This document shows, one piece after another, positions 1 to 19,557 of a stretch of DNA of 64,000 bases (its first letter is position 1; the number at the start of each line of letters is the position of its first letter). The notes under the pieces are model-generated. The model was not told the DNA's origin, searched no databases, and saw nothing but the letters and a program-made list of their open reading frames with translations. A program made the position numbers and the translations under genes. Source of the DNA: Nocardioides sp. Soil797 (lineage in GTDB: Bacteria; Actinomycetota; Actinomycetes; Propionibacteriales; Nocardioidaceae); contig LMSR01000016.1 in NCBI GenBank assembly GCA_001429555.1, forward strand, positions 65,384 through 129,383. Reading direction: 5' to 3'.

Positions 1-942
1 GCCGACGACCATCACGCGGGCCCCGGGTTCGTCGCCGACGGCGTCCTCGATGGCCGCGATCACCGACGACACCCGGCCGGCGACGTCGCTGCCGACCAGC
101 TGCAGCTGTGCGCCGCCACGCTGGGAGGTGCTCGGCAGGAAGGCGATGAAACGACTCCCGGGCAGCTTCTGCACCAACAGGTCACCCTCGACCCTGCTCA
201 GGGAGGCCATCAGTTCCTCGATGCTGGCCGGTGCCGGTAGCTCGTCGACCGCCGACGAGGCCTCGGTCGTCGACTCGCGGTAGCCCCCGGCGACGTCGCG
301 CAGGGCAGAGGAGAAGTCGTCGACGAAGTCGGTGGCCCCGACCGCGCGCAGTCCACCGTGGGTGACCGCCGGGCCCTCTTCGCCGCCGAGCACGGCCGCG
401 GTGAGCAGGGCACGCATCTGCAGGCCTTCGAGCAGACCGCCACCACCGCTGACGAAGTGGTCCATCAGCTCGGGGTTCTGCTCGGCGAGCTCGTTGAGGT
501 AGGAGGCCAGGCCCTCGCGGTCGAGCGCGTCGGTCTCGATCAGGCCGGCGGAGAAGATCGCCCCACCCAGCGCCACCTCGGGTGCGAGGTAGCCGACGGC
601 ACGGGCGGCCACGGAGCCGAGCGTCTTGTACGCCGCGAGCTGCAGGTCGTCGATCCAGCGATAGGTCAGCACGGTGGCACGCACGATCAGGGCATCGGCG
701 TCGAGCTCGACCGAGCGCACCATCAGCCCGGTCTTGCCGGTGGTGGCGTTGAGGATGTCCTCCTCCGCCTGGGCGTAGGTCGCCCTCGACAGCTCCTCGG
801 AGTCGCTGACTCCCTCGTCGGCGAGGATGTCGGCGCCGAGGGATGCCCGCTCGCGCATCTCGTCACCGGAGTTGTCGAACAGGTCGGCCAGGCGCATCAT
901 CTGGTCGTACTTGTCCTGCTGTTCGCTTTCGTGGGTGCTCAT
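1..942 (-). CDS. T7SS-associated protein, probable secreted hydrolase (3' part missing)
   Basis: Open on the minus strand from ATG at 942 to the window edge, giving 314 residues with no stop, so the C-terminus lies outside. The start overlaps the upstream stop by 4 bp (ATGA), so it is translationally coupled to the EspG-like gene. The N-terminus (MSTHESEQQDKYDQMMRLAD) is helical and lacks a Sec signal, as in T7SS substrates. Residues about 270-314 look like the strand before a nucleophile elbow: the last visible residues are ARVMVVG, where alpha/beta hydrolases continue with HSxGG. The hydrolase reading is inference, because the active-site serine is not in the window. The three-gene order (WXG-like, EspG-like, long protein) resembles a T7SS substrate with its partner and chaperone. 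Confidence 0.75.
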   Translation of the reverse strand, partial: MSTHESEQQDKYDQMMRLADLFDNSGDEMRERASLGADILADEGVSDSEELSRATYAQAEEDILNATTGKTGLMVRSVELDADALIVRATVLTYRWIDDLQLAAYKTLGSVAARAVGYLAPEVALGGAIFSAGLIETDALDREGLASYLNELAEQNPELMDHFVSGGGGLLEGLQMRALLTAAVLGGEEGPAVTHGGLRAVGATDFVDDFSSALRDVAGGYRESTTEASSAVDELPAPASIEELMASLSRVEGDLLVQKLPGSRFIAFLPSTSQRGGAQLQLVGSDVAGRVSSVIAAIEDAVGDEPGARVMVVG

Positions 943-1865
943 GCGGTCACCTCCGCGAGGACAGGGCCCAGGCTTGCGGCCAGTTCGGTCGCTTCGACCC
1001 GGCGTACTTCGACGCGGTTGGTGGTGTCGTCCTGGTGGGCACGCAGCACGCGCCAACCGTCGGCGAGCAACACCCAGGAGACCACTCCGACCACGTCGCC
1101 GCCGGCGTCGATGTCGGCCACGAGGGCCCGCAGGCGACCGCGGGTCTCACCGACCAGGGCAGTGATCGCCGACGTGACCGTCGAGTCGTCGACAGACTCA
1201 CCCGAGCCGTCGACGACCTCGCCAGTGTGGTGGGCGACGATGGTGCCCAGCAGGTCGGTACGGCCGCTGCGCACGGCCTCCCCACCGGCATCGAGCAGCT
1301 CGTAGGGGAAGTCGATGACTGGCGCAACGGTCGACTCCTCCGTGACGTGGTCCTCGGGGAGTGTGGGAACGCGGCCGAGCTCCGAGGGCCAGTGGGGGCT
1401 CTCGAACCAGGCCAACTCGAAGACCACGCCGTCGGTGGTGGCCAGGGTGGCCACCGCGCCCTCGCGCTGGCGGTGCCAGGCCTTGGCCCGGATGCCGTCG
1501 ACGTTGAGGTCGATGTCCACCGCGACAGCCGGGGTCGCCAGCAGGCCGAGGGCACCGAGGACACCCGCATCGGCGGTGCCGTCGACGATCAGTCCACGCT
1601 TCGCGAGCGCCTCGGCCGGGTCGTGCAGCGTGGCCAGCGCGTCGGCGTACGCCTGGTCCTCTGTGGCGGCCCGGGACTGGCCCAGGCGGCTCTCGAAGGC
1701 ATTGGCGCCGGCGTCGGGGGCGGCGATCTCGAAGGGCAGCGGCGCGCCTCCGGCCCGCTCGGCGAGCAGCTGCAGCTCGGGCAGCGTCAGCGCCAGGCGG
1801 CGGGGCAGGCCCTCGAGTGTGCCTTCGGCGGCAGGGGAGGGGGCGCTCAGGTCAATGGTCGGCAT
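939..1865 (-). CDS. EspG-like T7SS chaperone family protein
   Basis: This 308-residue protein has the layout of the EspG family, cytosolic chaperones that bind T7SS substrates: an N-terminal part with PFEIAAPD, a middle LAKRGLIVDG segment, then a run of predicted strands ending in SWVLLADGWRVLRAH. There is no signal peptide or membrane segment. It starts 3 bp after the WXG100-like gene and its stop overlaps the next start by 4 bp, so the three genes form one operon. In mycobacteria EspG serves PE/PPE pairs, and none is visible here, so the likely client is the adjacent long protein or the WXG100-like protein. Family assignment is by pattern only and should be confirmed by profile search. Confidence 0.65.
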   Translation of the reverse strand: MPTIDLSAPSPAAEGTLEGLPRRLALTLPELQLLAERAGGAPLPFEIAAPDAGANAFESRLGQSRAATEDQAYADALATLHDPAEALAKRGLIVDGTADAGVLGALGLLATPAVAVDIDLNVDGIRAKAWHRQREGAVATLATTDGVVFELAWFESPHWPSELGRVPTLPEDHVTEESTVAPVIDFPYELLDAGGEAVRSGRTDLLGTIVAHHTGEVVDGSGESVDDSTVTSAITALVGETRGRLRALVADIDAGGDVVGVVSWVLLADGWRVLRAHQDDTTNRVEVRRVEATELAASLGPVLAEVTA

Positions 1866-1868
1866 GTC

Positions 1869-2312
1869 TCACAACCCCGGGAGTTCGACGGTGAGCCAGT
1901 CCTTGTGGCCCGAGGTGGGGGCCACGAACTGGTCGAGAGTGCGGTCAGCGTCGTTGGGGTCGATGGTGACCCCGGACGACTCGCTCTGCGCACGCTGCTG
2001 GGCGATACGGGTGCGGGCGTCGGCGGTCAGGGAACCGGCCTTGCGCTCGATCCCGTCGATGGCGTCCTTGAGTCGTTCGACCTCGAGCACGTGCTTGGTC
2101 AACGACTCAGCGGCCGTCTCGTGCTGAGCGGCGCAGTCACGAAGGTGGGCGGCGCGGTCGTGGATGCGCGAACGCATGTCGGCTGCGGCGCGACCCTCCC
2201 AGTTGATCGACTCGATCTGTGCCACCAACCGGTCAGCCATCGCTCGGATGTCTGTGGACTGCTCCTGCAGCTGGGCGGCACGCTTGCGCATGGCGGCGGA
2301 GTCGCCGTACAT
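1869..2312 (-). CDS. WXG100-like T7SS substrate or partner protein
   Basis: This 147-residue, mostly helical protein has a central turn motif WEG (in INWEGRAAADMRSR) between two long predicted helices, as in the WXG100/ESAT-6 fold. The C-terminal extension of about 45 residues contains a proline and ends in LTVELPGL. It is longer than a typical 100-residue EsxA/EsxB, like EspC- or LXG-associated partners. An AGAGGTGA ribosome site sits just before the ATG. It is the first gene of the minus-strand operon with the EspG-like and long proteins, which suggests that it is co-secreted with, or guides, the long protein. Confidence 0.7.
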   Translation of the reverse strand: MYGDSAAMRKRAAQLQEQSTDIRAMADRLVAQIESINWEGRAAADMRSRIHDRAAHLRDCAAQHETAAESLTKHVLEVERLKDAIDGIERKAGSLTADARTRIAQQRAQSESSGVTIDPNDADRTLDQFVAPTSGHKDWLTVELPGL

Positions 2313-8899: not shown

Positions 8900-11800
8900 T
8901 CAGCCTTCGGTCGGCTCGCTCCAGGCCAGTTGGAGTGCTTCCACGCCACGGTCACGGGTGATCAGACGACCACGGCCGGGAGGCTGCGCCTTCGGGCGCA
9001 GGTTGCCCAGCAGCATGCCCTCGTCGGGGTTGCCCGAGAGCAGGATGCCCGGCATGGCGAGGTCGCGGATGGTCTGGATGATCGGGTCGTACATCGCCCG
9101 CGAGGCACCACCGGAACGACGTGTGACGATCAGGTGGAACCCGGTGTCCTTGGCCTGGGCCAGCAGCGGTGCCAGCGCGTGCACGGGTGACCCCTGCTGG
9201 GTGGCGACCAGGTCGTAGTCGTCGACCAGCACGAAGGCATCCGCACCCGTCCACCATGACCGCGCCCGGAGCTGGTCCGGCGTCACGTCGGGCCCGGGCA
9301 GACGGTTGGTCAGGTATTCGGCCAGGTCCTTGAGCGCCGGTCCCGCCTGCGTGGCACTGGTCAGGTAGTCGAGGTTGTACTCCTCGGGGATCTCGCCGAG
9401 CAGCGAGCGCCGGTAGTCGACCGAGATGATCTGGGCTTCCTTGGGCGAGCGGGTGCGCACGATCTCCTGGACGACGGCTCGCAGCAACGCACTCTTGCCG
9501 GACTGCCCGTCGCCGAGGACGAGCAGGTGGGGCTCGGCGTCGATGTCGATGGACACCGGTGCGAGCTCCTTCTCGTTGATGCCCAGCAGAACCTTGCGGG
9601 CCGCCGAGTCGCCGGCCTGCTCGCGCACGCGCTCGAGGGTGACCTTCGACGGCAGCAACCGCACCTTGGGCCCGGACGGGCCCTGCCAGGCCTCGGTGGT
9701 ACGCCGGATCAGGTCCTCGACGCCGTCACCGAGAGTGGCGGCGTCCTGGTCACCGTCGATGCGCGGCAGCGCACTGAGGAAGTGCAGCTTGCCGGTGATC
9801 AGGCCCCGCCCGGGCCGTCCGGTCGGCACCAGCTGGGCCACCTTGCGGTCGATCTCGGAGTCGAGCGGGTCGCCGAGGCGCAGCTCGAGCCTGGTGCCGA
9901 AGATGTCGCGCAACGCGGCACGGAAGTCGGCCCAGCGGCCGGCGGCGACGAGCAGGTGGACACCGAAGGTCAGGCCGCGCTGGGCCAGGGTCTGCAGCTC
10001 GATCTCGATGTCGTCGAAGTCGGAGCGCAGCGTGCTCCAGCCGTCGACCACGAGGAACACGTCGCCGTAGCCGTCGTCGGCGCGGCCCTGCGCGCGACGG
10101 CTCCGGTAGGTCTCGATGGAGTCGATGCCGTTCTGCCGGAAGTAGGCCTCACGACGGTCCACGACTCCCTTCACCTCGGCCACGATGCGGCGTACGACGT
10201 CGGGCTCGGAGCGGGTGCCGACACCGGAGACGTGGGGGAGTGAGGTCAGTGGGGCGAAGGTTCCGCCACCGAAGTCGAGGATGAAGAACTGGCTCTCCAG
10301 GGGCGTGGTCGTCAACGCCATGCTGGTCACGATCGTGCGCAGGATGGTGCTCTTGCCGGTGCGCGGCCCACCGACGATCGCCGCGTGGCCCGCGGCGCCG
10401 GTGAGGTTGACGGTCATCGTGTCGCGGCGCTGCTCGCGGGGACGGTCGACGATGCCGATCGGCACGGTGAGGCCGCCGAGGCCACGCCACTTGTGGCTGA
10501 CCAGACCCAGCTTCGGGTCGACGGCGAGGTCGCCCATCAGCGAGTCGAGGGTGTCGGCGACGTCGAGCGGCGGCAGCCACACCTGGTGGGCCGGCGTGCC
10601 CTGGCCGATCATCTTGTCGACCGCGATGTCGAGCAGGCTGTCCTGCTCGCCCTGTTGCGGTTGGGGAGTCGACACGGGCTCGGCGACGTCCTCCTCGATG
10701 GCAGCCAGGGACTGCACCTCGGCGATGGTGAACGGCAGGATGCCGCGCAGGTTTCCGCCCTCGTCACGGTGGATCCTCGCCCGGCCGGACGGTGGGCCCG
10801 AGACGTACGCCGCCTTGAACCGCAGCAACGTGGACTGGTCGGGCTTGAGGAAGCCCAGACCGGGAACGGCCGGGAGCTCGTAGGCGTCGGGGACGCCGAG
10901 CACCGTGCGGGACTCCACGGCGGAGAAGGTGCGCAGACCGACGCGGTAGGAGAGGTGGGACTCGAGGCCGCGCAGTCGGCCCTCCTCGAGGCGCTGGCTG
11001 GCCAGCAGCAGGTGGAGTCCGAGCGACCGGCCGAGGCGGCCGATGGCGACGAAGAGGTCGATGAACTCGGGCTTGGCGGTCAACATCTCGGAGAACTCGT
11101 CGACCACGATGAACAGCGACGGCATCGGTGGCAGGTCCTCGCCCGAGGCGCGGGCCTTCTCATAGTCGCGGATCGAGGCGTAGTTGCCGGCCGCGCGCAG
11201 CATCTCCTGGCGACGCACCATCTCGCCGGACAGTGCGTCCTGCATGCGGTCGACGAGGGTGAGCTCCTCGGCCAGGTTGGTGATCACGGCCGAGACGTGG
11301 GGCATCTCCGACATGCCGGCGAAGGTGGCACCACCCTTGAAGTCGACCAGCACCATGTTGAGCTGTTCGGGGGAGTGGGTCATCGACAGGCCGAGCACCA
11401 AGGTGCGCAGGAACTCGGACTTCCCGGAACCGGTGGCACCGATGACGAGGCCGTGGGGTCCCATGCCCTGTTGGGCGGACTCCTTGATGTCGAGGTGCAC
11501 TGGCGACCCGTTGTCGGCGACACCGATCGGCACCCGCAACCGGTCTCGGGCCGGCCGCTGGCGCCAGGCGGAACGGGTCTCGAACGAGAACACGTCCCCG
11601 AGCCCGAGCAGGTCCATGAAGTCGGTGGGGCCGGTGCTCTCGTTGCCGCTGGAGTCGGACCCGAGGGAGACGGTGTTGAGCGGAGCCAGCCGCCGGGCGA
11701 ACGCCTCAGCCGTGGCCAGGTCCATCTGGTCGGCGAGCCCCTTCATCGGCTCGCTGCGCACCCGCAGCGCGGTGACCGGCTGCCGGCCGTCCTCGGGCGG

Positions 11801-12892
11801 CATGTTGGCGAAGTCGAGACGCAGGCGCGTGGGGTCGTCGAGCTCGTCCCACTGCTCGGGCAGGTCGATCAGGGTGACGCCGTGGAGACCGTCGGGCGGG
11901 ATGATGTGGTTGCCGGGAGGCAGGTGGCCGCCGTCGATGACGAGCAGGATGTGCGGCAGCGCCGGCCCTTCGTCGGCACCGAACCGGGGACGCTCGGACA
12001 GGTCCTGGGGAAGCATCGCTCCGAGGTCGTCGAGCGACGTCGTCACCATCCGTCGCGGGCCGACCGCGTCGCCCTGCTGGGCGCTCAGCGAGTGGGGCAG
12101 CCACTTGAGCCAGTCCCACTCGGCCAGGTGGTCGTCGCTGCACAGCACGGCCACGATCACGTGCTCGGGGTGGTGGAAGGCGCTCGCCGAGCAGATCATC
12201 GCCCGGGCCAGTGCCCGCGCGGTCTCGACGGGCCCGGTGAGCTCGATGCGGTCGAAGGCCCGCAGGTCGATCGAGGCAGGCAGGTTGGGCTGCACCCGGT
12301 GCACCACCAGGAGGCGGTGCAGCGCCGACGCGGCCGCCGGATCGACCTGCTCGATGGGTGCGCTCTCGGGAGGCACCAGCTCCAGGGAGAGTGGCTGGGA
12401 GGACAGCCCGTACCTGACGTGCAGGAAGCGTTCGTCGGACGGCGTGTGCTCCCAGAGTCGGATCCTGTCCTCGGCCAGCGACGGGAGCGCGGACGGTTCG
12501 GGGTGGTGCCAGTTCAGCGCGGAGCGCTGCTTGTTGGCCGCGTTGCGTGCCACGTCGCGGATGGTGGCGAGGTAGCGGAGATATTCGGTGCGGGACCCGC
12601 TGAGCTGCTGCTGGCGTTGCTTCCGCTGCCGGTCGATCTGCACGATGATGAAGCCGATCGTGGCGAAGAGGAACATGCCGCCGGCGATCAGGCGCTTCGC
12701 GTTGCCGCCGTTGTCGCTGCTCATCGTGGCCACGACCAGGATCGAACCGACGCTGCCGAGCATCGGGATCGCCATCATCATCGCGTTGCCGGCACCCTCG
12801 CGTGCCTGGAGCTCCGGGGGTGCCTGCACCTCGACCTTCCCGGTGGGCACCTCCGGCGGCTCGAGGCGTTGTCCACTTCGCAGCGTCGTCAC
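8900..12892 (-). CDS. eccC: Type VII secretion ATPase EccC (fused EccCa/EccCb)
   Basis: This 1330-residue FtsK/SpoIIIE-type motor drives ESX secretion. Two membrane helices at about residues 37-87 are followed by three ATPase domains. Their Walker A motifs are GATGSGKS (about residue 485), GGPRTGKS (about 841) and GDGQSGKS (about 1127). The first domain has a full Walker B with glutamate (VVDEFSE), while the second has VVDGWS without that glutamate, which agrees with the known pattern that only the first EccC domain is a strong ATPase. All three are in one chain, as in EccC of Streptomyces and Thermomonospora rather than the split mycobacterial ESX-1 form. The GTG at 12892 has AGGGAG upstream. 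It is divergent from eccD. Confidence 0.97.
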   Translation of the reverse strand: MTTLRSGQRLEPPEVPTGKVEVQAPPELQAREGAGNAMMMAIPMLGSVGSILVVATMSSDNGGNAKRLIAGGMFLFATIGFIIVQIDRQRKQRQQQLSGSRTEYLRYLATIRDVARNAANKQRSALNWHHPEPSALPSLAEDRIRLWEHTPSDERFLHVRYGLSSQPLSLELVPPESAPIEQVDPAAASALHRLLVVHRVQPNLPASIDLRAFDRIELTGPVETARALARAMICSASAFHHPEHVIVAVLCSDDHLAEWDWLKWLPHSLSAQQGDAVGPRRMVTTSLDDLGAMLPQDLSERPRFGADEGPALPHILLVIDGGHLPPGNHIIPPDGLHGVTLIDLPEQWDELDDPTRLRLDFANMPPEDGRQPVTALRVRSEPMKGLADQMDLATAEAFARRLAPLNTVSLGSDSSGNESTGPTDFMDLLGLGDVFSFETRSAWRQRPARDRLRVPIGVADNGSPVHLDIKESAQQGMGPHGLVIGATGSGKSEFLRTLVLGLSMTHSPEQLNMVLVDFKGGATFAGMSEMPHVSAVITNLAEELTLVDRMQDALSGEMVRRQEMLRAAGNYASIRDYEKARASGEDLPPMPSLFIVVDEFSEMLTAKPEFIDLFVAIGRLGRSLGLHLLLASQRLEEGRLRGLESHLSYRVGLRTFSAVESRTVLGVPDAYELPAVPGLGFLKPDQSTLLRFKAAYVSGPPSGRARIHRDEGGNLRGILPFTIAEVQSLAAIEEDVAEPVSTPQPQQGEQDSLLDIAVDKMIGQGTPAHQVWLPPLDVADTLDSLMGDLAVDPKLGLVSHKWRGLGGLTVPIGIVDRPREQRRDTMTVNLTGAAGHAAIVGGPRTGKSTILRTIVTSMALTTTPLESQFFILDFGGGTFAPLTSLPHVSGVGTRSEPDVVRRIVAEVKGVVDRREAYFRQNGIDSIETYRSRRAQGRADDGYGDVFLVVDGWSTLRSDFDDIEIELQTLAQRGLTFGVHLLVAAGRWADFRAALRDIFGTRLELRLGDPLDSEIDRKVAQLVPTGRPGRGLITGKLHFLSALPRIDGDQDAATLGDGVEDLIRRTTEAWQGPSGPKVRLLPSKVTLERVREQAGDSAARKVLLGINEKELAPVSIDIDAEPHLLVLGDGQSGKSALLRAVVQEIVRTRSPKEAQIISVDYRRSLLGEIPEEYNLDYLTSATQAGPALKDLAEYLTNRLPGPDVTPDQLRARSWWTGADAFVLVDDYDLVATQQGSPVHALAPLLAQAKDTGFHLIVTRRSGGASRAMYDPIIQTIRDLAMPGILLSGNPDEGMLLGNLRPKAQPPGRGRLITRDRGVEALQLAWSEPTEG

Positions 12893-12946
12893 GGCGCGTT
12901 CTCCCTGCAACTTCTCGACTGGTGCATCACGTTCAGGTCGGGGTCG

Positions 12947-12952
12947 ATCCTA
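12947..12952 (-). promoter_or_regulatory. -10 box for eccC
   Basis: TAGGAT reads on the minus strand about 55 bp before the eccC GTG. It leaves a leader of roughly 48 nt that contains the AGGGAG ribosome site. Confidence 0.45.
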
Positions 12953-13062
12953 GTGGTCCGTCTGCGAAATGGCGCGGCCTCGCCCCGCCCGGCATCGCGA
13001 CGTGCCACCAGCCTCGGATCAGACGTCGGGTGTGGGCCGAGCGCCGCACCACCCGGCCGTAC

Positions 13063-13068
13063 TACGCT
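13063..13068 (+). promoter_or_regulatory. -10 box for the eccD-led operon
   Basis: TACGCT lies 27 bp before the first eccD start; GGAGGG follows and serves as the ribosome site. With the eccC promoter it makes a 200-bp divergent control region for the secretion genes. Confidence 0.4.
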
Positions 13069-13094
13069 TCCGGCATCACCGGAGGGAGCGTGGC

Positions 13095-14456
13095 GTGGCC
13101 GAAACAGTCCTCGAGGACACCGTTGCCGTGACCGTGCACGGCTCCGTGGGCGCGGTCGACCTCATCGTCCCGCTCGGTGCCTCGGCCAGTGACGTGGCCC
13201 GGGAGTACGCCGCCCAGTCCGGCTCCGTGGAGGTCCCCCGGCTGGTGACCATCATCGGCAGGCAGCTTCCGCCGACGACCTCGATGGAAGCGGCCGGGGT
13301 CACGGCCGGAGCCGTGCTGGTGGCCTTCTCGGGTGACTCGCCGACCCCGTCCTCACCGGCACGCCCGGCCTCCGACCCGACGACAACCGATCGGCGTACG
13401 CCGGCCGCGGTGGCAGTGTTGACCGGCGCTGCGGTGCTCGCCACCGCCAGCGCGTTCCTCGGAGCACACGCCGAGGGTTGGCAACGCGACGTGGTCCTCG
13501 GCTGCCTGGCGTTCGCCGCGGCCCTGGGCGTGATCCCGATGGGGCGTCACATCGACCTGCGTGGCGTGAGCGCGCCGGCGTTCGGTGCGGCGCTGGGCTA
13601 TCTCCTGGTCTGGGAACCGGGGTCCTTCTCGCAGCCGCTGGCCTTCGGCATCACCGGCCTGGGCGCGGCACTGGTCGCGGGGATTGCTCGTGCCTCTGGC
13701 GCCGGGCCAGCCGTCGTACACACCGTCTGGATGGTGGCCGGCGCCGGCACCTTCCTGGTCTCTGGCGCCGTGGTGCTCACCGGAGCACCGCCCCAGCTCA
13801 CGTGGGCGGTGCTGCTGATCGCCGCACTCCTGGCCACCCGGTCCGTGGTCGCGGCCGCGGTCGACGTACCCGACCAGATGCTCATCGACCTCGAGCGGCT
13901 GGCGGTCACCGCGTGGTCGGCACGCGATCGGCCCCGAGGACGTCGCGGGCGCATCATGATCCGCGAGTCGGCGGTCAGCGAAGTGCTCGCCCGAGGAACC
14001 CTCATCGTCAACGCGACCAGCGTCGCCATCCTCGTGCTGGTCGTGGTCGCGACTCCGCAGCTCCTCGCGGAGGCCACCTTCGACGTCGATCGCCCGGGCG
14101 CCCAGGCGCTCGTCTTCTTCACCGGGGCCGGCATCCTGCTGGCGGCTCGGAGCTTCCGTCACCCGCAGGCCCGGATCCTGTTGCGGACCGCCGGCCTGTT
14201 CGCCTGGGCGATGCTGGCGGTGGAGCTCCTCCCCGGCTACTCGGAGCGAACCCTGTTGTGGGTCGTGGTGGTGTCCCTCGCCCTGGCCGCCAGCGCACTC
14301 GCGACCGCCATCGCCACCGGGCGTGGCTGGCGTTCGGCCTGGTGGGCTTCGAAGGCTGAGCTGGCCGAGACCCTGGCCGGCGCGTTCGCGATCGGTGCCC
14401 TCGTCGTGGCGAGCGGTCTCATGCGCCTGGTCTGGGAGATCCCCTTCGTCCGCTGA
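13095..14456 (+). CDS. eccD: Type VII secretion membrane protein EccD, paralogue 1
   Basis: This 453-residue protein has the EccD layout: a ubiquitin-like cytosolic domain at about residues 5-80 (VAVTVHGSVGAVDLIVPLGA), a linker, then about 11 hydrophobic helices from residue 95 to the end. EccD forms the membrane pore scaffold and its ubiquitin-like domain contacts EccC. The GTG start at 13095 has GGAGGG about 8 nt upstream. A second, clearly different EccD lies at 15443-16801 in the same locus. It is followed, after 170 bp, by the two small WXG100 genes. Confidence 0.88.
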   Translation: MAETVLEDTVAVTVHGSVGAVDLIVPLGASASDVAREYAAQSGSVEVPRLVTIIGRQLPPTTSMEAAGVTAGAVLVAFSGDSPTPSSPARPASDPTTTDRRTPAAVAVLTGAAVLATASAFLGAHAEGWQRDVVLGCLAFAAALGVIPMGRHIDLRGVSAPAFGAALGYLLVWEPGSFSQPLAFGITGLGAALVAGIARASGAGPAVVHTVWMVAGAGTFLVSGAVVLTGAPPQLTWAVLLIAALLATRSVVAAAVDVPDQMLIDLERLAVTAWSARDRPRGRRGRIMIRESAVSEVLARGTLIVNATSVAILVLVVVATPQLLAEATFDVDRPGAQALVFFTGAGILLAARSFRHPQARILLRTAGLFAWAMLAVELLPGYSERTLLWVVVVSLALAASALATAIATGRGWRSAWWASKAELAETLAGAFAIGALVVASGLMRLVWEIPFVR

Positions 14457-14625
14457 TCGGTGCCGCTCGCAGGGGTTGTCTGTGGAAACCGAGAATGCGA
14501 TGTTTACGTGGTAAGGGCACGGGTAACACAGGTCTCAGCGACGCAAGTCGCAGCAGAACGACCAGAACTTCACCCACCACAGATCGCTCGGGCAGATCGT
14601 GCTCGACACGAAGGGAAGACAACCG

Positions 14626-14940
14626 ATGAGTACAGGCGGAATGAAGGCAACAGCCGACGTCCTCAGAGTGGCTGCAAAGGACGTCAAGAGCACCCAGGAA
14701 GAGCTCGACTCGATCATCACCGACATCCGTTCCAAGCTGGATCACCTCAACACCGCTTGGCAGGGTCGTGGTGGCAAGGCGTTCCAGGGCGCCATCCTGT
14801 CGTGGCAGCGCACCGCCAACCGTGTCACCGGTGCGATGGACAACTTCCACTCGAGCCTGCTCGGCACCGAGCAGACCTACGACGAGACCGAAGACTTCGT
14901 GGCCGGCGGCCTGAACCGTTACGAGGACGGCGCTCTCTGA
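14626..14940 (+). CDS. WXG100 family T7SS substrate (EsxB/EsxA-like), first of pair
   Basis: This 104-residue protein has the helix-turn-helix of WXG100 proteins, with the turn motif WQG (NTAWQGRGGKAF) at about residue 45. The C-terminus contains YDETEDF, which fits the YxxxD/E secretion signal carried by one partner of each Esx pair. That makes this the likely signal-bearing partner (EsxB-like). The ATG at 14626 has AAGGGA upstream. It is followed 34 bp later by the second WXG100 gene, and the two probably form a secreted heterodimer. Confidence 0.92.
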   Translation: MSTGGMKATADVLRVAAKDVKSTQEELDSIITDIRSKLDHLNTAWQGRGGKAFQGAILSWQRTANRVTGAMDNFHSSLLGTEQTYDETEDFVAGGLNRYEDGAL

Positions 14941-14974
14941 GCGTCGGACAGACTGAGACTGAGGAGAAGACACC

Positions 14975-15274
14975 ATGACCGGTGAGAACATTGCAGTTGA
15001 CTACGACCAGCTCGACGGCGCCGCGACCATCATCAAGAACCGCGCGATCGACATCGAGGACAAGCTGAACCAGATGGAGAAGCGGATGCTCGCCCGCAAG
15101 GACGAGTGGACCGGCGACGCGTCCAACGCCTTCGACGAGTGCCGTGCCGACTGGGAAGGCGCGATGAACGACATGAAGAACGTCCTCAACGACATCGGCC
15201 ACCAGGTCGGTCTCTCCAACCAGGAGTACCAGGCCGCTGAGGCCGCAAACGCGAGGCGCTTTCGCGGAGCATGA
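14975..15274 (+). CDS. WXG100 family T7SS substrate, second of pair
   Basis: This 99-residue WXG100 protein has the turn motif WTG (KDEWTGDASNAF) at about residue 46, between two helices, and a short tail containing YQAAEAANARR. GAGGAGA sits 7 nt before the ATG, which is the strongest ribosome site in the locus and suits a highly made substrate. A hairpin terminator follows about 25 bp after the stop. No tyrosine plus acidic signal as clear as in the first partner is seen. Confidence 0.92.
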   Translation: MTGENIAVDYDQLDGAATIIKNRAIDIEDKLNQMEKRMLARKDEWTGDASNAFDECRADWEGAMNDMKNVLNDIGHQVGLSNQEYQAAEAANARRFRGA

Positions 15275-15299
15275 GCCGCAACGGTCCGTCAGGACTGTG

Positions 15300-15329
15300 A
15301 AGGGGTTGTCGATGGACCGACGACCCCTT
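15300..15329 (+). terminator. Hairpin after the WXG100 pair
   Basis: The arms AAGGGGTTGTCG and CGACGACCCCTT pair over 12 bp with one G-T pair and a 6-nt loop. There is only a weak T-run. It would let the two small secreted proteins be made in excess over the membrane genes downstream. Confidence 0.6.
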
Positions 15330-15375
15330 CTTGGCGTCGGGGGCGTGGCCGTCGATGAGCGGTGACCGTCAGCGG

Positions 15376-15381
15376 TAGGCT
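15376..15381 (+). promoter_or_regulatory. -10 box for eccD2-eccB-mycP
   Basis: TAGGCT lies 61 bp before the second eccD start and downstream of the hairpin terminator. This implies a separate promoter for the membrane and protease genes. Confidence 0.4.
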
Positions 15382-15442
15382 GCACACCGCCTTCAGCACG
15401 CATCCGCAGCACCATCCGCTCAAGCACAGAACTGGGGAGAGG

Positions 15443-16801
15443 ATGTCCCAAGCCGCGACACCTGCCAGCACCTCCGGCCTCGTCCGGGTCACCGTTGCCT
15501 CCGGCACCCGCCGCGTCGACCTCGTGCTGCCCGGGTCGATCCCCGTGGCCGAGTTGGTTCCCGAGCTGGCCCGCAGCGTCGGCCTCCTGGACTCCACCAC
15601 CGTCTACGGCGGATACCGAGTGGTCACCGGCGACGGCCGCGAGCTCGTCAACGATGCCGGCCTCACCATGCAGGGTGTCGAGGACGGTGGGTTGCTCACA
15701 GTCGCCGCCGGCATCGACGACCCGCCGCCGCGCGTCTACGACGATGTCGTGGAGGCGATGGCCGACGCGGTCGAGCGTGACCTGAAGCCCTGGGAGCCTG
15801 CGGCAGGGCGGCGTACGGCGCTCACCGCGAGCTCGCTCCTGCTCGCCCTCGGTGGTCTGGCGTTGCTGCTCCAGCGCGGCTCCGCGGTCGGCTCCGCGGC
15901 GGCCTGCATCATCGCGGTCCTCCTCGTGGTCGGAGCCATCGTGCTCAGCCATGTGCAACACGAGCGCGAGGCCGCGGTCTGCCTGGCCTGGATGGGGGCG
16001 GCGTACGGCGCGGTGGCCGGTCTGATGCTGGTTCCCGACGGCGGTGTCCTCGGCACCCCGATGGCGGCTGCCGGTGCCGGCGCACTGGTCGCTGGCGGGG
16101 TTGCGCTCGTCGGCCTCGACGAAGGTCGGGCCCTGGTGATCCCTGCAGTCGTCGTGGGCAGCATCTTCTGCGCGGTGGGCCTGGTGATGAACGCCGCCGA
16201 CTTCGACCCGGCCGTGGTGTTCACCATCGTGCTGACACTCGTGGTCGTGGCCGGCAGCGTGCTGCCCTGGCTGGCCCTGGCCGCCACCCACTCGCGGGTG
16301 GAGCAGCTCTACTCCCACGCCGACATCACCAACGACCCCGACCCGATCGATCCGAAGACCGTCCACGGCGATGCCGTCGTCGGTCACGAGATCCTCCTCG
16401 CCGTCACCGCAACCGTCGGGGCGCTGCTGGTGCTGTGCGCACCGATGGCCGTCTCGCTCGGCCTCTTCGGAGCCCTGCTCGCCGTGGCCGCCTCCGCGGT
16501 CGTGATGCTGCGCACCCGCCAGTACCGTTCCGGCTCCGAGGTCCTGGCCGGCCTCACTTCGGGCATCCTCGGCCTGCTCTCCACGGCCGGTGCCGTCCTG
16601 GTCATGCATCCCGACTGGCGCCCGACAGCGGCCGTCGTACTCGCGGCCACGGCCGCGTTGCTGCTGGCCGGCACGCTCGTGCCGACCTCGCCGTCCGTGC
16701 GCCGCGGTCGGCTCGGCGACGTCGCCGAAGTGGTGGCGTTGCTCGCGTTGGTGCCGCTGCTGGTCCTGGCCAGTGGGCTCTTCGACCGCGTGAGCGGGTG
16801 A
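15443..16801 (+). CDS. eccD: Type VII secretion membrane protein EccD, paralogue 2
   Basis: This 452-residue protein again has an N-terminal ubiquitin-like domain (about residues 12-90: GLVRVTVASGTRRVDLVLPG), a linker ending about residue 125, then 11 hydrophobic helices. Sequence similarity to the first EccD is low by eye, so this is an old paralogue rather than a fresh duplicate. In solved ESX structures EccD is a dimer within each protomer, so the two here might form a heterodimer; this is inference. The start follows GGGGAGAGG. eccB follows within 6 bp. Confidence 0.9.
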   Translation: MSQAATPASTSGLVRVTVASGTRRVDLVLPGSIPVAELVPELARSVGLLDSTTVYGGYRVVTGDGRELVNDAGLTMQGVEDGGLLTVAAGIDDPPPRVYDDVVEAMADAVERDLKPWEPAAGRRTALTASSLLLALGGLALLLQRGSAVGSAAACIIAVLLVVGAIVLSHVQHEREAAVCLAWMGAAYGAVAGLMLVPDGGVLGTPMAAAGAGALVAGGVALVGLDEGRALVIPAVVVGSIFCAVGLVMNAADFDPAVVFTIVLTLVVVAGSVLPWLALAATHSRVEQLYSHADITNDPDPIDPKTVHGDAVVGHEILLAVTATVGALLVLCAPMAVSLGLFGALLAVAASAVVMLRTRQYRSGSEVLAGLTSGILGLLSTAGAVLVMHPDWRPTAAVVLAATAALLLAGTLVPTSPSVRRGRLGDVAEVVALLALVPLLVLASGLFDRVSG

Positions 16802-16807
16802 GCCCCG

Positions 16808-18199
16808 GTGTCCACCAAGCGTGATCTGGTCGAGGCGCACGCCTTCAGCCGGCGGCGCCTCGTCACGGCCTTCGTCAGCGGCGCGCCCGGAGGTCGCGAG
16901 GTCGAGCCCGTGCGGCAGACCCGTGTGGTCATCGGTGGCATCGCCCTCGGCGTGCTGCTGGTCGCCGGTGCTGCCCTGGCCGCGATCCTCGGCGGTGGCC
17001 GCTCTCCCTCCGACTGGCTCGACCCGGGAGTGGTCATCTCCAAGGAGGAGGGCAGTCGTTACGTCGTGCTCACCGAGGGCGGAGACCTGCACCCGGTGCT
17101 CAACCCGGTCTCCGCGCGCCTCCTGCTCGGTGACACCGAGCCCAAGGTGGTCAAGGAGGAAGTGATCCGGGGGGAGCCCCTCGGTGCCCAGATCGGCATC
17201 TACGGCGCCCCCGACGGCGTGCCGGAGTCCGGCTTCCTCCGTTCCAGCGGCTGGACCTCCTGCACCACCACCGAGGCAGCGAGCAAGCTCCATCTCGGCG
17301 ACAAGCCTGTCGCCACACCGGTCACCGACACCGCCATGGTGGTGACGACCACGTCCGGCAAGGGCGGGCCGACGTACTACCTGGTGGCGCCCTCCGCCGA
17401 CCCCGACCACGGCTACTACCGCTACAAGATGGGCTCGAAGGCGCAGGCCTCCCCCTTGCTCGGCGACCTCCGTCTCGACGGTGCCGAGGAGTTCCGGGTC
17501 TCCGCGCGCTGGCTCAACCTCTTCCCACAGGGGCCGAATCTGTCCCTCGCGAGCTTCAACCTCCCGGCCGGTTCGCCGAGGGCCACCTACCTCGACGGCG
17601 GCTCCCACAGGGTGGGCGACCTGGTCCGCAACCCCAGCTCCGGGCAGGTCTACGTGCTCGGCAGCGAGTCGCCGTTGCTGCTCACCGAGTTCTCCCAGCG
17701 CGTCTACGGCGCCGTCTCCGACGCGGGTGCACCCAAGGACTCCGACGGCGTGGCGGGTGAGCCGATCGAAGCGCTCGAGGACTGGCCGGGCGCCGTACCC
17801 CAACCCTTGCTAGACGACGAGTCCTGCGCGCTCCTCGATGCCGAGGCCGGCGAGGCGGCCCGGGTCCGCCTGGCCGTGAACCCGTCCAGCCAGGAGAGCG
17901 CCATCGACTCCAAGCCGGGCTCGTCGGAGGTCACTGTCGAGCCGTCGTACGGCGCCTATGTCAACGTCGGTCAGTTCGGCGACGAGGCAGGGGGCTCCCC
18001 GGTGCTGATCGACATGAACGCCACCCGCTACCGCCTCGGAGGGGAAGAGGGCCTGGCCGCCGAGATGTTCGGCTACGGCAGCATCGACCCGCCGACCGTT
18101 CCTGACTCCTGGACGGAGGGCTTCGACTGCGGCCCCGAGCTCTCCCAGGAGGCTGCACGGCGCTCACCCGACCCCAGGAGCACGGCTCGATGCGGCTGA
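16808..18199 (+). CDS. eccB: Type VII secretion protein EccB
   Basis: This 463-residue protein starts at GTG. A short cytosolic head (STKRDLVEAHAFSRRRLVTA, the EccB signature) is followed by one membrane helix at about residues 42-62 and a long extracytoplasmic domain built of repeats around a central core. A single pair of cysteines (about residues 151 and 337) may form the disulfide known from mycobacterial EccB. EccB connects the membrane complex to the outside and to MycP. The 3' end overlaps mycP by 10 bp. Confidence 0.95.
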   Translation: MSTKRDLVEAHAFSRRRLVTAFVSGAPGGREVEPVRQTRVVIGGIALGVLLVAGAALAAILGGGRSPSDWLDPGVVISKEEGSRYVVLTEGGDLHPVLNPVSARLLLGDTEPKVVKEEVIRGEPLGAQIGIYGAPDGVPESGFLRSSGWTSCTTTEAASKLHLGDKPVATPVTDTAMVVTTTSGKGGPTYYLVAPSADPDHGYYRYKMGSKAQASPLLGDLRLDGAEEFRVSARWLNLFPQGPNLSLASFNLPAGSPRATYLDGGSHRVGDLVRNPSSGQVYVLGSESPLLLTEFSQRVYGAVSDAGAPKDSDGVAGEPIEALEDWPGAVPQPLLDDESCALLDAEAGEAARVRLAVNPSSQESAIDSKPGSSEVTVEPSYGAYVNVGQFGDEAGGSPVLIDMNATRYRLGGEEGLAAEMFGYGSIDPPTVPDSWTEGFDCGPELSQEAARRSPDPRSTARCG

Positions 18200-19557
18200 G
18201 TCGGCTGGCCTCCTACGCGCTCGTGGCGGGTCTGGCGGCTCCCGGCGGACTGGCCGCATCCGCGCTCGCGCCTGCCGCGGCCCACGGTGCGCCTGCCGCG
18301 GCCGTGGTCGGGCCCGTCGCGCCGGCGTACGCCGGATTCGGGAACGCCGGGTCCGGGTACGCCCGGTTCGGGAGTGCAGCGCAGAAGACCGGGTGCACGA
18401 CGGCGGCGCCGGGTGACGACACCCAGTCGACCGACGTCAGCAAGGCCGACGACGAGAAGAACCAAGCACTGCGGGCGCTGCGCCTCGACGACGTGCACAA
18501 GATCGCCACCGGTGCAGGTGTGGGCGTCGCGGTCATCGACTCGGGCGTCCAGCCCGGTCCCAACCTGACCCTGCGCGGTGGCACCTCGTTCGTCGGCAAC
18601 GGCGAGATCGTCGACGGCCACGGCACCATCGTGGCGGGGTTGATCGCGGGCAGGGGCGACACCACCTCGATCGCGCCCGGGGCACACATCGTCCCGATCC
18701 GGGTCAGCGCCTCCGAGCCCGACCAGGACGACCCCCAACCCGGCCGGGTCGACCCCGCGGCCGTTGCCCAGGCGATCAACTGGGCTGTGGACCACCGCAA
18801 CGACGGCGGCAACAACATTCGGGTGATCAACCTGTCCCTGGGCTTCGCCGACCGCGACCAGCCCCAGATCAGCGACGCCGTCGCGAAGGCCGAGAAGGCG
18901 GGGATCGTGGTGGTGGCTGCGGCGGGCAACCGGCCGGACGACTCCGCCGAGGACCCCGACGAAGCGCCGACGGATGACGCCGACAAGCCGGAGAAGACGC
19001 CCGACGAGGTGCTGTTCCCGGCCACGCTCGACACCGTGATCGCCGCGACTGCGCGCGACGAGAACCTGGCGATGACCACCGAAGCCGTCTACGTCGGTCC
19101 CGAGATCGACGTGTCGGCGCCCGTGGTGGGGCTGCGCTCGGTGATGTTGCGCGGCCTGCTCTGCGACATCCCGTTCACCGCCTCGAGCTGGGCCACCGCC
19201 GAGGTCAGTGGCCTGGCCGCCCTCCTCCTGCAGCAGGATCCCGACCTGAGTGCCGCACAGGTGCGCACCCGCATCGAGGCGACCGCCCAGGGCGGGTTCC
19301 ACGACAGCGCCACCGACGGCCACGGGATGATCCAGCCCTACGAGGCGCTCACCGCCATGCTCGACATCGCCCGTGACGGCACCCTGCGCGAGAGCCGCGC
19401 GACCCAGCGCGAGGAGTTCGAGGCCGACAGGCCGGAAGTGCCCGGCGACCAGTACGCCGCCAGCCGCAAGCACCTGCTCTGGTGGGGAGTGGGGGCCGGA
19501 GGCGCGGTGCTCCTGGTGCTGATCCTGCGTCCGTTGACCGCGCGTCGCCGAGACTGA
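18190..19557 (+). CDS. mycP: Mycosin, subtilisin-like T7SS protease MycP
   Basis: This 455-residue S8 peptidase has an N-terminal Sec signal (about residues 1-32) and an Ala/Gly-rich propeptide-like stretch. The catalytic residues are Asp117 (VIDSG), His144 (DGHGTIVAG) and Ser333, with oxyanion Asn247 (AAAGN). The serine motif reads ASSWATAEVSG instead of the usual GTSxATPxVAG; the serine is kept. A C-terminal membrane anchor spans about residues 430-450, ending in the positively charged LTARRRD. MycP stabilises the ESX membrane complex and cleaves some substrates. It overlaps eccB and ends the operon. Confidence 0.95.
   Translation: MRLSRLASYALVAGLAAPGGLAASALAPAAAHGAPAAAVVGPVAPAYAGFGNAGSGYARFGSAAQKTGCTTAAPGDDTQSTDVSKADDEKNQALRALRLDDVHKIATGAGVGVAVIDSGVQPGPNLTLRGGTSFVGNGEIVDGHGTIVAGLIAGRGDTTSIAPGAHIVPIRVSASEPDQDDPQPGRVDPAAVAQAINWAVDHRNDGGNNIRVINLSLGFADRDQPQISDAVAKAEKAGIVVVAAAGNRPDDSAEDPDEAPTDDADKPEKTPDEVLFPATLDTVIAATARDENLAMTTEAVYVGPEIDVSAPVVGLRSVMLRGLLCDIPFTASSWATAEVSGLAALLLQQDPDLSAAQVRTRIEATAQGGFHDSATDGHGMIQPYEALTAMLDIARDGTLRESRATQREEFEADRPEVPGDQYAASRKHLLWWGVGAGGAVLLVLILRPLTARRRD

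What the first reader, a model, noticed from the sequence alone, without database searches (positions are those of the whole stretch)
1..2312. T7SS effector-like module: WXG partner, EspG-like chaperone and long possible hydrolase
Three minus-strand genes are tightly coupled (3-bp gap, then ATGA overlap): a 147-residue WXG100-like protein, an EspG-like protein and a long protein that runs off the window just before what looks like an alpha/beta hydrolase nucleophile elbow (ends VMVVG). EspG is known as a chaperone of PE/PPE pairs, which are absent here, so this may be an EspG relative serving another class of substrate outside the mycobacteria. The long gene is easy to miss because it has no stop in the window.
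Basis: partly seen in the sequence, partly recalled or inferred. Interest (0 to 1): 0.72.

Follow-up and report, generated by a model that had tools for sequence, protein, structure and literature searches.

The report
EspG-chaperoned dead hydrolase secretion module
Soil bacteria of the genus Nocardioides carry, near a type VII secretion machine, a three-gene set made of a small helical partner, a chaperone known mainly from mycobacteria, and a long protein that looks like a lipase but whose active site has been taken apart, which suggests an exported protein that binds rather than cuts.

Summary
In detail: three coupled minus-strand genes (147, 308 aa, and one running off the window). The own genome completes the long protein at 428 aa. 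The middle protein has the EspG fold: the 14 best PDB entries are EspG1/3/5 (Z 15.2-18.5, next 4.3), and three orthologues pass the Pfam EspG cut-off. An ESX locus (EccC, EccD, EccB, mycosin, two WXG100) lies 6.6 kb away. The long protein's C-terminal domain is an alpha/beta-hydrolase fold, but the nucleophile elbow reads GHAQGG, not GHSxG. Among 160 unique members, a sister group of 50 keeps Ser, Asp and His in all 50; this protein's clade of 110 lacks the catalytic His in all 110 and the Ser in 103, while Asp stays in 108. It evolves under purifying selection. Its N-terminal half carries YxxxD in 109 of 110; the small partner carries WxG but almost never YxxxD/E: together a split T7SS signal. 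Best reading: an EspG-chaperoned ESX-4-like substrate pair whose cargo is a pseudohydrolase. Secretion, complex formation and function are inferred, not shown.

The parts
1..942 (-). 5' 942 bases (314 codons) of the long gene (428 aa whole); N-terminal helical half plus start of a degenerate alpha/beta-hydrolase domain; the rest lies outside the window (L003:15040-15384)
   Evidence: ORF open at the edge; completed in the own genome; hydrolase fold for residues about 223-428
649..663 (-). Codons 94-98, YRWID: candidate YxxxD secretion signal of the long protein
   Evidence: Y in 109 of 110 and D in 109 of 110 of the clade; in the sister group D in 50 of 50 but Y in only 5 of 50
939..1865 (-). 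EspG-like chaperone, 308 aa
   Evidence: Pfam PF14011 sub-threshold (21.0 vs 27 bits); three orthologues over cut-off; model vs PDB EspG Z up to 18.5
1869..2312 (-). WXG100/PPE-like helical partner, 147 aa, with conserved C-terminal GHxDWL-type tail
   Evidence: 26 of 38 homologues match T7SS_signal, 20 PPE, 16 WXG100 at E<=0.01; own protein below all three cut-offs; alignment
2193..2201 (-). Codons 38-40, W-E-G (WxG motif) of the small partner
   Evidence: W38 invariant in 38 of 38
8900..12850 (-). EccC ATPase of the nearby ESX system
   Evidence: TIGR03924 and TIGR03925 over cut-off
13095..14456 (+). Membrane protein of the ESX locus, EccD-like by eye, no NCBIfam match
   Evidence: no family at E<=0.001
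14641..15274 (+). Two WXG100 genes (14641-14940, 14975-15274)
   Evidence: TIGR03930 over cut-off for both
15443..16801 (+). EccD
   Evidence: TIGR03920 over cut-off
16808..18199 (+). EccB
   Evidence: PF05108 over cut-off; TIGR03919 E 3.1e-41 but below its cut-off
18190..19557 (+). Mycosin (MycP)
   Evidence: TIGR03921 E 1.6e-63, below its cut-off

Best explanation
The three genes encode a type VII secretion substrate pair and its chaperone. The 147-aa protein (WxG, PPE/WXG100-like) pairs with the helical N-terminal half of the 428-aa protein, which supplies the YxxxD half of the export signal. The EspG-like protein caps the pair in the cytoplasm and hands it to EccC of the ESX-4-like machine encoded 6.6 kb away. 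The exported cargo is the C-terminal alpha/beta-hydrolase fold, which in this clade is a pseudoenzyme: nucleophile Ser and catalytic His are gone, Asp kept. It most likely binds a ligand, a surface or a partner instead of hydrolysing an ester. Shown here by computation: gene coupling, EspG fold, hydrolase fold, loss of the catalytic residues, purifying selection, the conserved YxxxD, proximity to ESX. Inferred: pairing, chaperoning, export, the ESX-4 label (from gene content, no tree made) and the binding role.
For: EspG fold: Foldseek 4w4i E 2.0e-12, and all 18 chains with E<=0.001 are EspG; of 50 listed VIA entries the first 14 are EspG1/3/5 with Z 15.2-18.5, next row 4.3; 14 of 31 homologues match PF14011 at E<=0.01, best 1.3e-10. 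Hydrolase fold: Z 11.3, 158 residues aligned, rmsd 3.3 to 5dwd, many others tied. Lost triad: His column empty or other in 110 of 110 (one row, L052_02, has a His within 8 columns), Ser absent in 103 of 110, Asp kept in 108 of 110, versus 50/50/50 of 50 in the sister group; one branch separates the groups, support 100. Split signal: YxxxD at residues 94-98 in 109 of 110; WxG in 139 of 149 unique small partners, YxxxD/E (sought from residue 21 on) in 1 of 149. ESX link: EccB within 25 kb of the module in 18 of the 20 genus genomes where both lie on one contig (coordinates; distances worked out by hand); 27 of 31 genus genomes with an EccB match carry the degenerate form and 0 of 6 without (Fisher p 9e-5). 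Selection: dN/dS 0.16-0.26 for the long gene, 0.16-0.25 EspG-like, 0.08-0.30 WXG-like, three species pairs each (ratios). In the degenerate clade the N-terminal half is more conserved than the C-terminal half (mean identity 0.68 vs 0.56), in the sister group less (0.41 vs 0.52), 400 random pairs each.
Against: No experiment shows export. The own EspG-like protein is below the Pfam cut-off, and a profile of its family found no EspG chain in the PDB by sequence. The N-terminal half of the long protein has no Pfam match to WXG100, PE or PPE, no profile similarity to the small partner, and the model is poor at residues 111-138 and 166-186. In the sister group Tyr of YxxxD is L or F in 42 of 50, so the motif may not be the signal. 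27 of 50 sister-group members have no EspG-like gene between partner and hydrolase, so EspG is not always needed. Three of the six genomes without an EccB match (G006, G025, G027) carry sister-type members, and EccC matches exist in all six, partial in G027. A new His (410) is conserved in 105 of 110, so some chemistry cannot be ruled out.
Confidence: 0.6

Rival explanations
1. A working secreted lipase/esterase effector with a chaperone, analogous to mycobacterial PE/PPE proteins with a serine-hydrolase domain or to the staphylococcal T7SS lipase TslA.
For: Hydrolase fold; the sister group has an intact Ser-Asp-His in 50 of 50 and a similar gene order, so this is likely what those are; 7 of 110 in the clade carry Ser at the elbow.
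Against: This protein has Ala at the elbow and no catalytic His; 103 of 110 lack Ser and all 110 lack the aligned His, including the 7 with Ser.
Confidence: 0.08
2. Not a substrate but an accessory part of the secretion machine: EspG-like protein, partner and pseudohydrolase form a cytoplasmic or membrane-bound adaptor or gate of the ESX-4-like system, comparable in role to substrates needed for secretion of others.
For: Wide conservation in the genus together with the ESX locus; the strongest conservation lies in residues 80-124, in part in a stretch that the model cannot place, as expected for an interface.
Against: One EccB-carrying genome lacks the module (G018) and 4 of 31 lack the degenerate form (G004, G016, G018, G032); the WxG/YxxxD features are those of substrates.
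Confidence: 0.2
3. The degenerate fold does nucleophile-free chemistry (Asp366 with the newly conserved His410) or serves as a ligand receptor.
For: Asp in 108 of 110, His410 in 105 of 110 versus 12 of 50 in the sister group; the fold list includes BotH, an alpha/beta-hydrolase-fold epimerase (that it works without a Ser nucleophile is recalled).
Against: No substrate or ligand known; His410 lies at the start of the last helix in the model and may be structural.
Confidence: 0.12

Closest known systems
EspG1/EspG3/EspG5 chaperones of mycobacterial ESX systems (PF14011)
   Same: Same fold over residues 12/22-308, T7SS neighbourhood, encoded beside a PPE/WXG100-like helical protein
   Different: 10-14% identity; no PE match in the genome; adjacent cargo candidate is a pseudohydrolase; longer (308 aa)
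PE/PPE proteins with a C-terminal PE-PPE serine-hydrolase domain (recalled; search listing only)
   Same: T7SS helical N-terminus plus alpha/beta-hydrolase C-terminus, partner protein, EspG chaperone
   Different: No PE or PPE family match to the long protein; catalytic residues lost
EsaD-EsaE and the lipase TslA of T7SSb (PMC11217815, passages read)
   Same: Large substrate with small helical partners; EsaE predicted to share the EspG fold; TslA is a T7SS lipase
   Different: Systems of Bacillota; TslA has its helical domain at the C-terminus and is a working toxin
ESX-4 / ESX-4EVOL (PMC4791881, passages read)
   Same: EccB, EccC, EccD, mycosin and WXG100 genes in an actinomycete outside the mycolate group
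   Different: The paper ties espG to eccA, eccE, pe and ppe acquired on plasmids in mycolate species; here EspG occurs without a PE match and with no EccE match (the EccE search had no positive control; EccA was not sought)

Membership tests
EspG family (PF14011) | Match over the Pfam gathering cut-off | tested here: inconclusive
   Own protein 21.0 of 27 bits; orthologues in three of 37 genus genomes (G026, G008, G013) over cut-off
EspG family (PF14011) | EspG fold | tested here: met
   Z 15.2-18.5 to 14 EspG entries, up to 246 residues aligned, next row Z 4.3; Foldseek E 2.0e-12
EspG family (PF14011) | Binds a PE/PPE-type heterodimer | not testable with these tools
   No co-folding offered; binding inferred from gene order only
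Alpha/beta hydrolase (active serine hydrolase) | Alpha/beta-hydrolase fold | tested here: met
   Residues about 223-428, Z 11.3
Alpha/beta hydrolase (active serine hydrolase) | Nucleophile Ser in the GxSxG elbow | tested here: not met
   GHAQGG; 103 of 110 in the clade have Ala or Gly
Alpha/beta hydrolase (active serine hydrolase) | Catalytic His | tested here: not met
   Not at the aligned column in 110 of 110, present in 50 of 50 of the sister group
PE/PPE substrates | PPE (PF00823) or PE (PF00934) match over cut-off | tested here: not met
   Small partner 17.8 vs 26 bits for PPE; no PE match in the own genome
WXG100 (PF06013/TIGR03930) | Match over cut-off | tested here: not met
   17.9 vs 27.3 bits; 16.5 vs 44.85. 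The W-x-G motif itself is present
T7SSa (ESX) substrate | WxG on one partner and YxxxD/E on the other | tested here: met
   WxG 139 of 149 small partners, YxxxD 109 of 110 long proteins of the clade; that the two proteins are partners is inferred
T7SSa (ESX) substrate | Export that depends on EccC | not testable with these tools
   Needs an eccC deletion and secretome

The most novel reading that the evidence does not exclude
A genus-wide pseudoenzyme substrate of an ESX-4-like system: a secreted lipase-type protein lost its catalysis on one long branch and then froze in its N-terminal, export-facing half. EspG is kept with the dead form in 109 of 110 but with only 21 of 50 triad-intact sister forms, so the dead form may have become a dedicated, chaperoned component that binds a ligand, steers or shields against the working sister, or gates the machine. 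EspG would then not be tied to PE/PPE and mycolate envelopes.
Probability: 0.35. Interest if true: 0.7.

Novelty: new variant of a known kind. Interest (0 to 1): 0.55.

Why it matters
ESX-4-type systems are held to be the ancestral ESX machines (PMC11217815, passage), and their cargo outside mycobacteria is little known (recalled). Here is a clear EspG-fold chaperone beside such a machine in Nocardioides, with a conserved substrate-like partner. The paired clades (triad intact, triad dismantled) give a natural comparison to ask what a T7SS cargo does when its enzyme is switched off, and whether EspG came before PE/PPE.

Tried and rejected
A working serine hydrolase was rejected for this protein. 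A pseudogene in decay was rejected (dN/dS 0.16-0.26 over three species pairs, intact frames). Homology of the two helical N-termini was tested and not found (hhalign probability 1.0%). Single-sequence PDB searches told little, and the EspG-like profile found no EspG chain by sequence; the fold search did. The EspG-like profile beyond the genus: 16 of 345 class genomes, all of the same genus. PADLOC gave one weak match, of the small partner (E 0.0089). The co-occurrence with EccB in 37 genus genomes depends on how members are counted: 30 of 31 vs 0 of 6 with single-sequence matches at E<1e-20 (p 3e-6) and p 0.001 if the two weak matches count; 27 of 31 vs 0 of 6 for the degenerate form (p 9e-5); 30 of 31 vs 3 of 6 when the sister-type members found in three EccB-less genomes by profile or in fetched loci are counted (p 0.01). 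The genomes are related, so these p values are too small. EccC matches exist in all six EccB-less genomes. Paper searches: pseudoenzyme + type VII secretion + hydrolase, 0 papers; Nocardioides + type VII secretion, 6 papers, none with a term in title or abstract (listing only). These cover the held open-access library only.

Rows dropped before counting: 191 long-protein hits, 164 after removing copies identical over their last 380 aa, 160 after leaving out two short fragments (L110_00, L201_03), one truncated row (L200_09) and one other type of hydrolase (L068_12). L107 to L186 came from a search with the degenerate clade as query (best 80 of 106 kept), so the ratio 110 to 50 is a sampling result, not a natural frequency. 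Genes in loci were called by my own simple script, not by a published gene finder. The tree is a FastTree tree with several long end branches. The third checkpoint in the notebook says 20 of 50 sister members have EspG; the recount gives 21.

Full report
WHAT IS THERE. The window is base 65384-129383 of contig 13 of a 4.38-Mb genome. The 80 named loci that encode a relative are labelled Nocardioides or Pimelobacter, apart from two metagenome bins with a broader label; the nearest is N. jensenii with 83% identity in the best segment. The three genes sit as described: 147 aa at 1869-2312, 308 aa at 939-1865, and a long gene from 942 to the window edge, all minus strand. The own contig to the left completes the long gene: 428 aa, stop 345 bp past the edge. 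Beyond it lie a VWA-type and a MoxR-type gene on the other strand (named by eye).

THE MIDDLE PROTEIN IS AN EspG RELATIVE. Sequence alone is marginal: PF14011, 21.0 bits against a cut-off of 27. Orthologues in three of 37 genus genomes pass the cut-off, and 14 of 31 homologues match at E<=0.01, best 1.3e-10. The model (mean pLDDT 85.4, pTM 0.80) settles the fold: all 18 chains that Foldseek matches with E<=0.001 are EspG, and VIA-align gives Z 15.2 to 18.5 for 14 EspG entries, then a drop to 4.3.

THE T7SS IS NEXT DOOR. In the window at 8900-19557 lie EccC, an EccD-like membrane protein without NCBIfam match, two WXG100 proteins, EccD, EccB and mycosin; EccB and mycosin score below NCBIfam's own cut-offs, EccB above Pfam's. 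Across 37 genomes of the genus, 31 have an EccB match; the degenerate long protein is in 27, all among those 31. Where module and EccB lie on one contig, 18 of 20 genomes have them within 25 kb (distances by hand). No PE match was found in the own genome. PPE, sought in 9 genomes, gave a sub-threshold match elsewhere in the own genome, one in a relative, and one just over cut-off in another relative. EccE gave no match, but that search rang nowhere, so absence is not shown; EccA was not sought. I call the system ESX-4-like from this gene content only.

THE LONG PROTEIN IS A PSEUDOHYDROLASE. The residues at the window edge and just past it read GHAQGG. The C-terminal domain (about 223-428) matches alpha/beta hydrolases, best 5dwd, Z 11.3 over 158 residues, rmsd 3.3, with many ties. 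I collected 160 unique members. Fifty form a sister group with GHS at the elbow, Asp after the next strand, and His in the last loop, in 50 of 50 each. The other 110, with this protein, form one side of a branch with support 100. Rooted on the most distant member (an arbitrary choice, a long row) this branch has length 1.26. There the elbow residue is Ala in 63, Gly in 40 and Ser in 7; the catalytic His column holds no His in 110 of 110, and only one row has any His within 8 columns; Asp remains in 108. Six of the seven Ser cases form one group nested inside the clade, and none has the catalytic His, so they look like later changes and not survivors; at least three changes of Ser are needed. 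Three further members in other loci (G119, G027, and G115 of another genus) have GHSxGG, so the intact triad is probably ancestral.

IT IS KEPT, NOT DECAYING. Between three closely related species dN/dS is 0.16-0.26 for the long gene, with both halves constrained. The half that matters most has changed: mean identity in the N-terminal half is 0.68 in the degenerate clade against 0.41 in the sister group, while in the hydrolase half it is 0.56 against 0.52. Residues 80-124 are almost frozen, with YRWID at 94-98: Tyr in 109 of 110 and Asp in 109 of 110. In the sister group Asp is in 50 of 50 but Tyr in 5 of 50. The small partner has WxG in 139 of 149 unique sequences and YxxxD/E, sought from residue 21 on, in 1 of 149. 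In T7SSa substrates the general export motif is YxxxD (start of the abstract of PMC5311947, seen in the listing), with the signal on the PE partner of a PE-PPE pair and EspG shielding the tip of the bundle (PMC11217815, passages); that PPE proteins carry the WxG is recalled. The split of the two motifs over two coupled genes beside EspG fits that plan. It is an inference: the N-terminal half has no Pfam match to a T7SS family and no profile similarity to the partner.

EspG FOLLOWS THE DEAD FORM. The EspG-like gene is directly upstream in 109 of 110 degenerate members, but in 21 of 50 sister members; 27 of 50 have the partner gene directly upstream, and 2 have an unmatched gene of 265 or 291 codons there. 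In 14 of 110 degenerate modules another long-protein gene lies directly upstream of the module, triad-intact in 14 of 14, and 26 of 134 loci hold both types (unique rows).

COMPARISON. The authors of PMC4791881 place espG, with eccA, eccE, pe and ppe, as later plasmid-borne additions to ESX-4 in mycolate species (passages). An EspG-fold protein in Nocardioides widens that picture. It is not the only EspG outside PE/PPE: in one genome of another family (f41, unnamed) EspG genes lie beside a PPE-matching 408-aa protein and a 108-aa protein without Pfam match, beside a 413-aa protein without Pfam match, and beside a dienelactone-hydrolase gene. In the class sample PF14011 was over cut-off in 28 of 295 genomes, all in families f7 and f41.

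VERDICT. Observation right; EspG guess right; enzyme guess wrong in an interesting way. I rate it a new variant of a known kind: an EspG-chaperoned T7SS pair with a pseudohydrolase cargo.

Noticed in passing
L003:15097-15099 (codon 410 of the long gene, just outside the window): A new His (410) is conserved in 105 of 110 degenerate members but in 12 of 50 sister members; it may be structural or part of a new site.
   Followed up: partly
L044, L049, L051, L117 and ten other loci: Tandem arrangement: a triad-intact partner-hydrolase unit lies directly upstream of the degenerate module in 14 of 110 cases.
   Followed up: partly
window 13095-14456: A membrane protein beside the WXG100 pair looks like a second EccD by eye but has no NCBIfam match; the locus may use two different EccD-type subunits.
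   Followed up: no
   Followed up: no
L264 (G027), 14773-15730: A genome with no EccB match shows short WXG100-, EccD- and EccB-like pieces (by eye) near a triad-intact partner-hydrolase pair; the ESX locus looks reduced.
   Followed up: no
L226 (G018:C28:130000-148000): This genome has EccB and EccC but no module at E<=0.001 in the single-sequence search; the stretch was fetched and passed through the gene script but not examined further.
   Followed up: no
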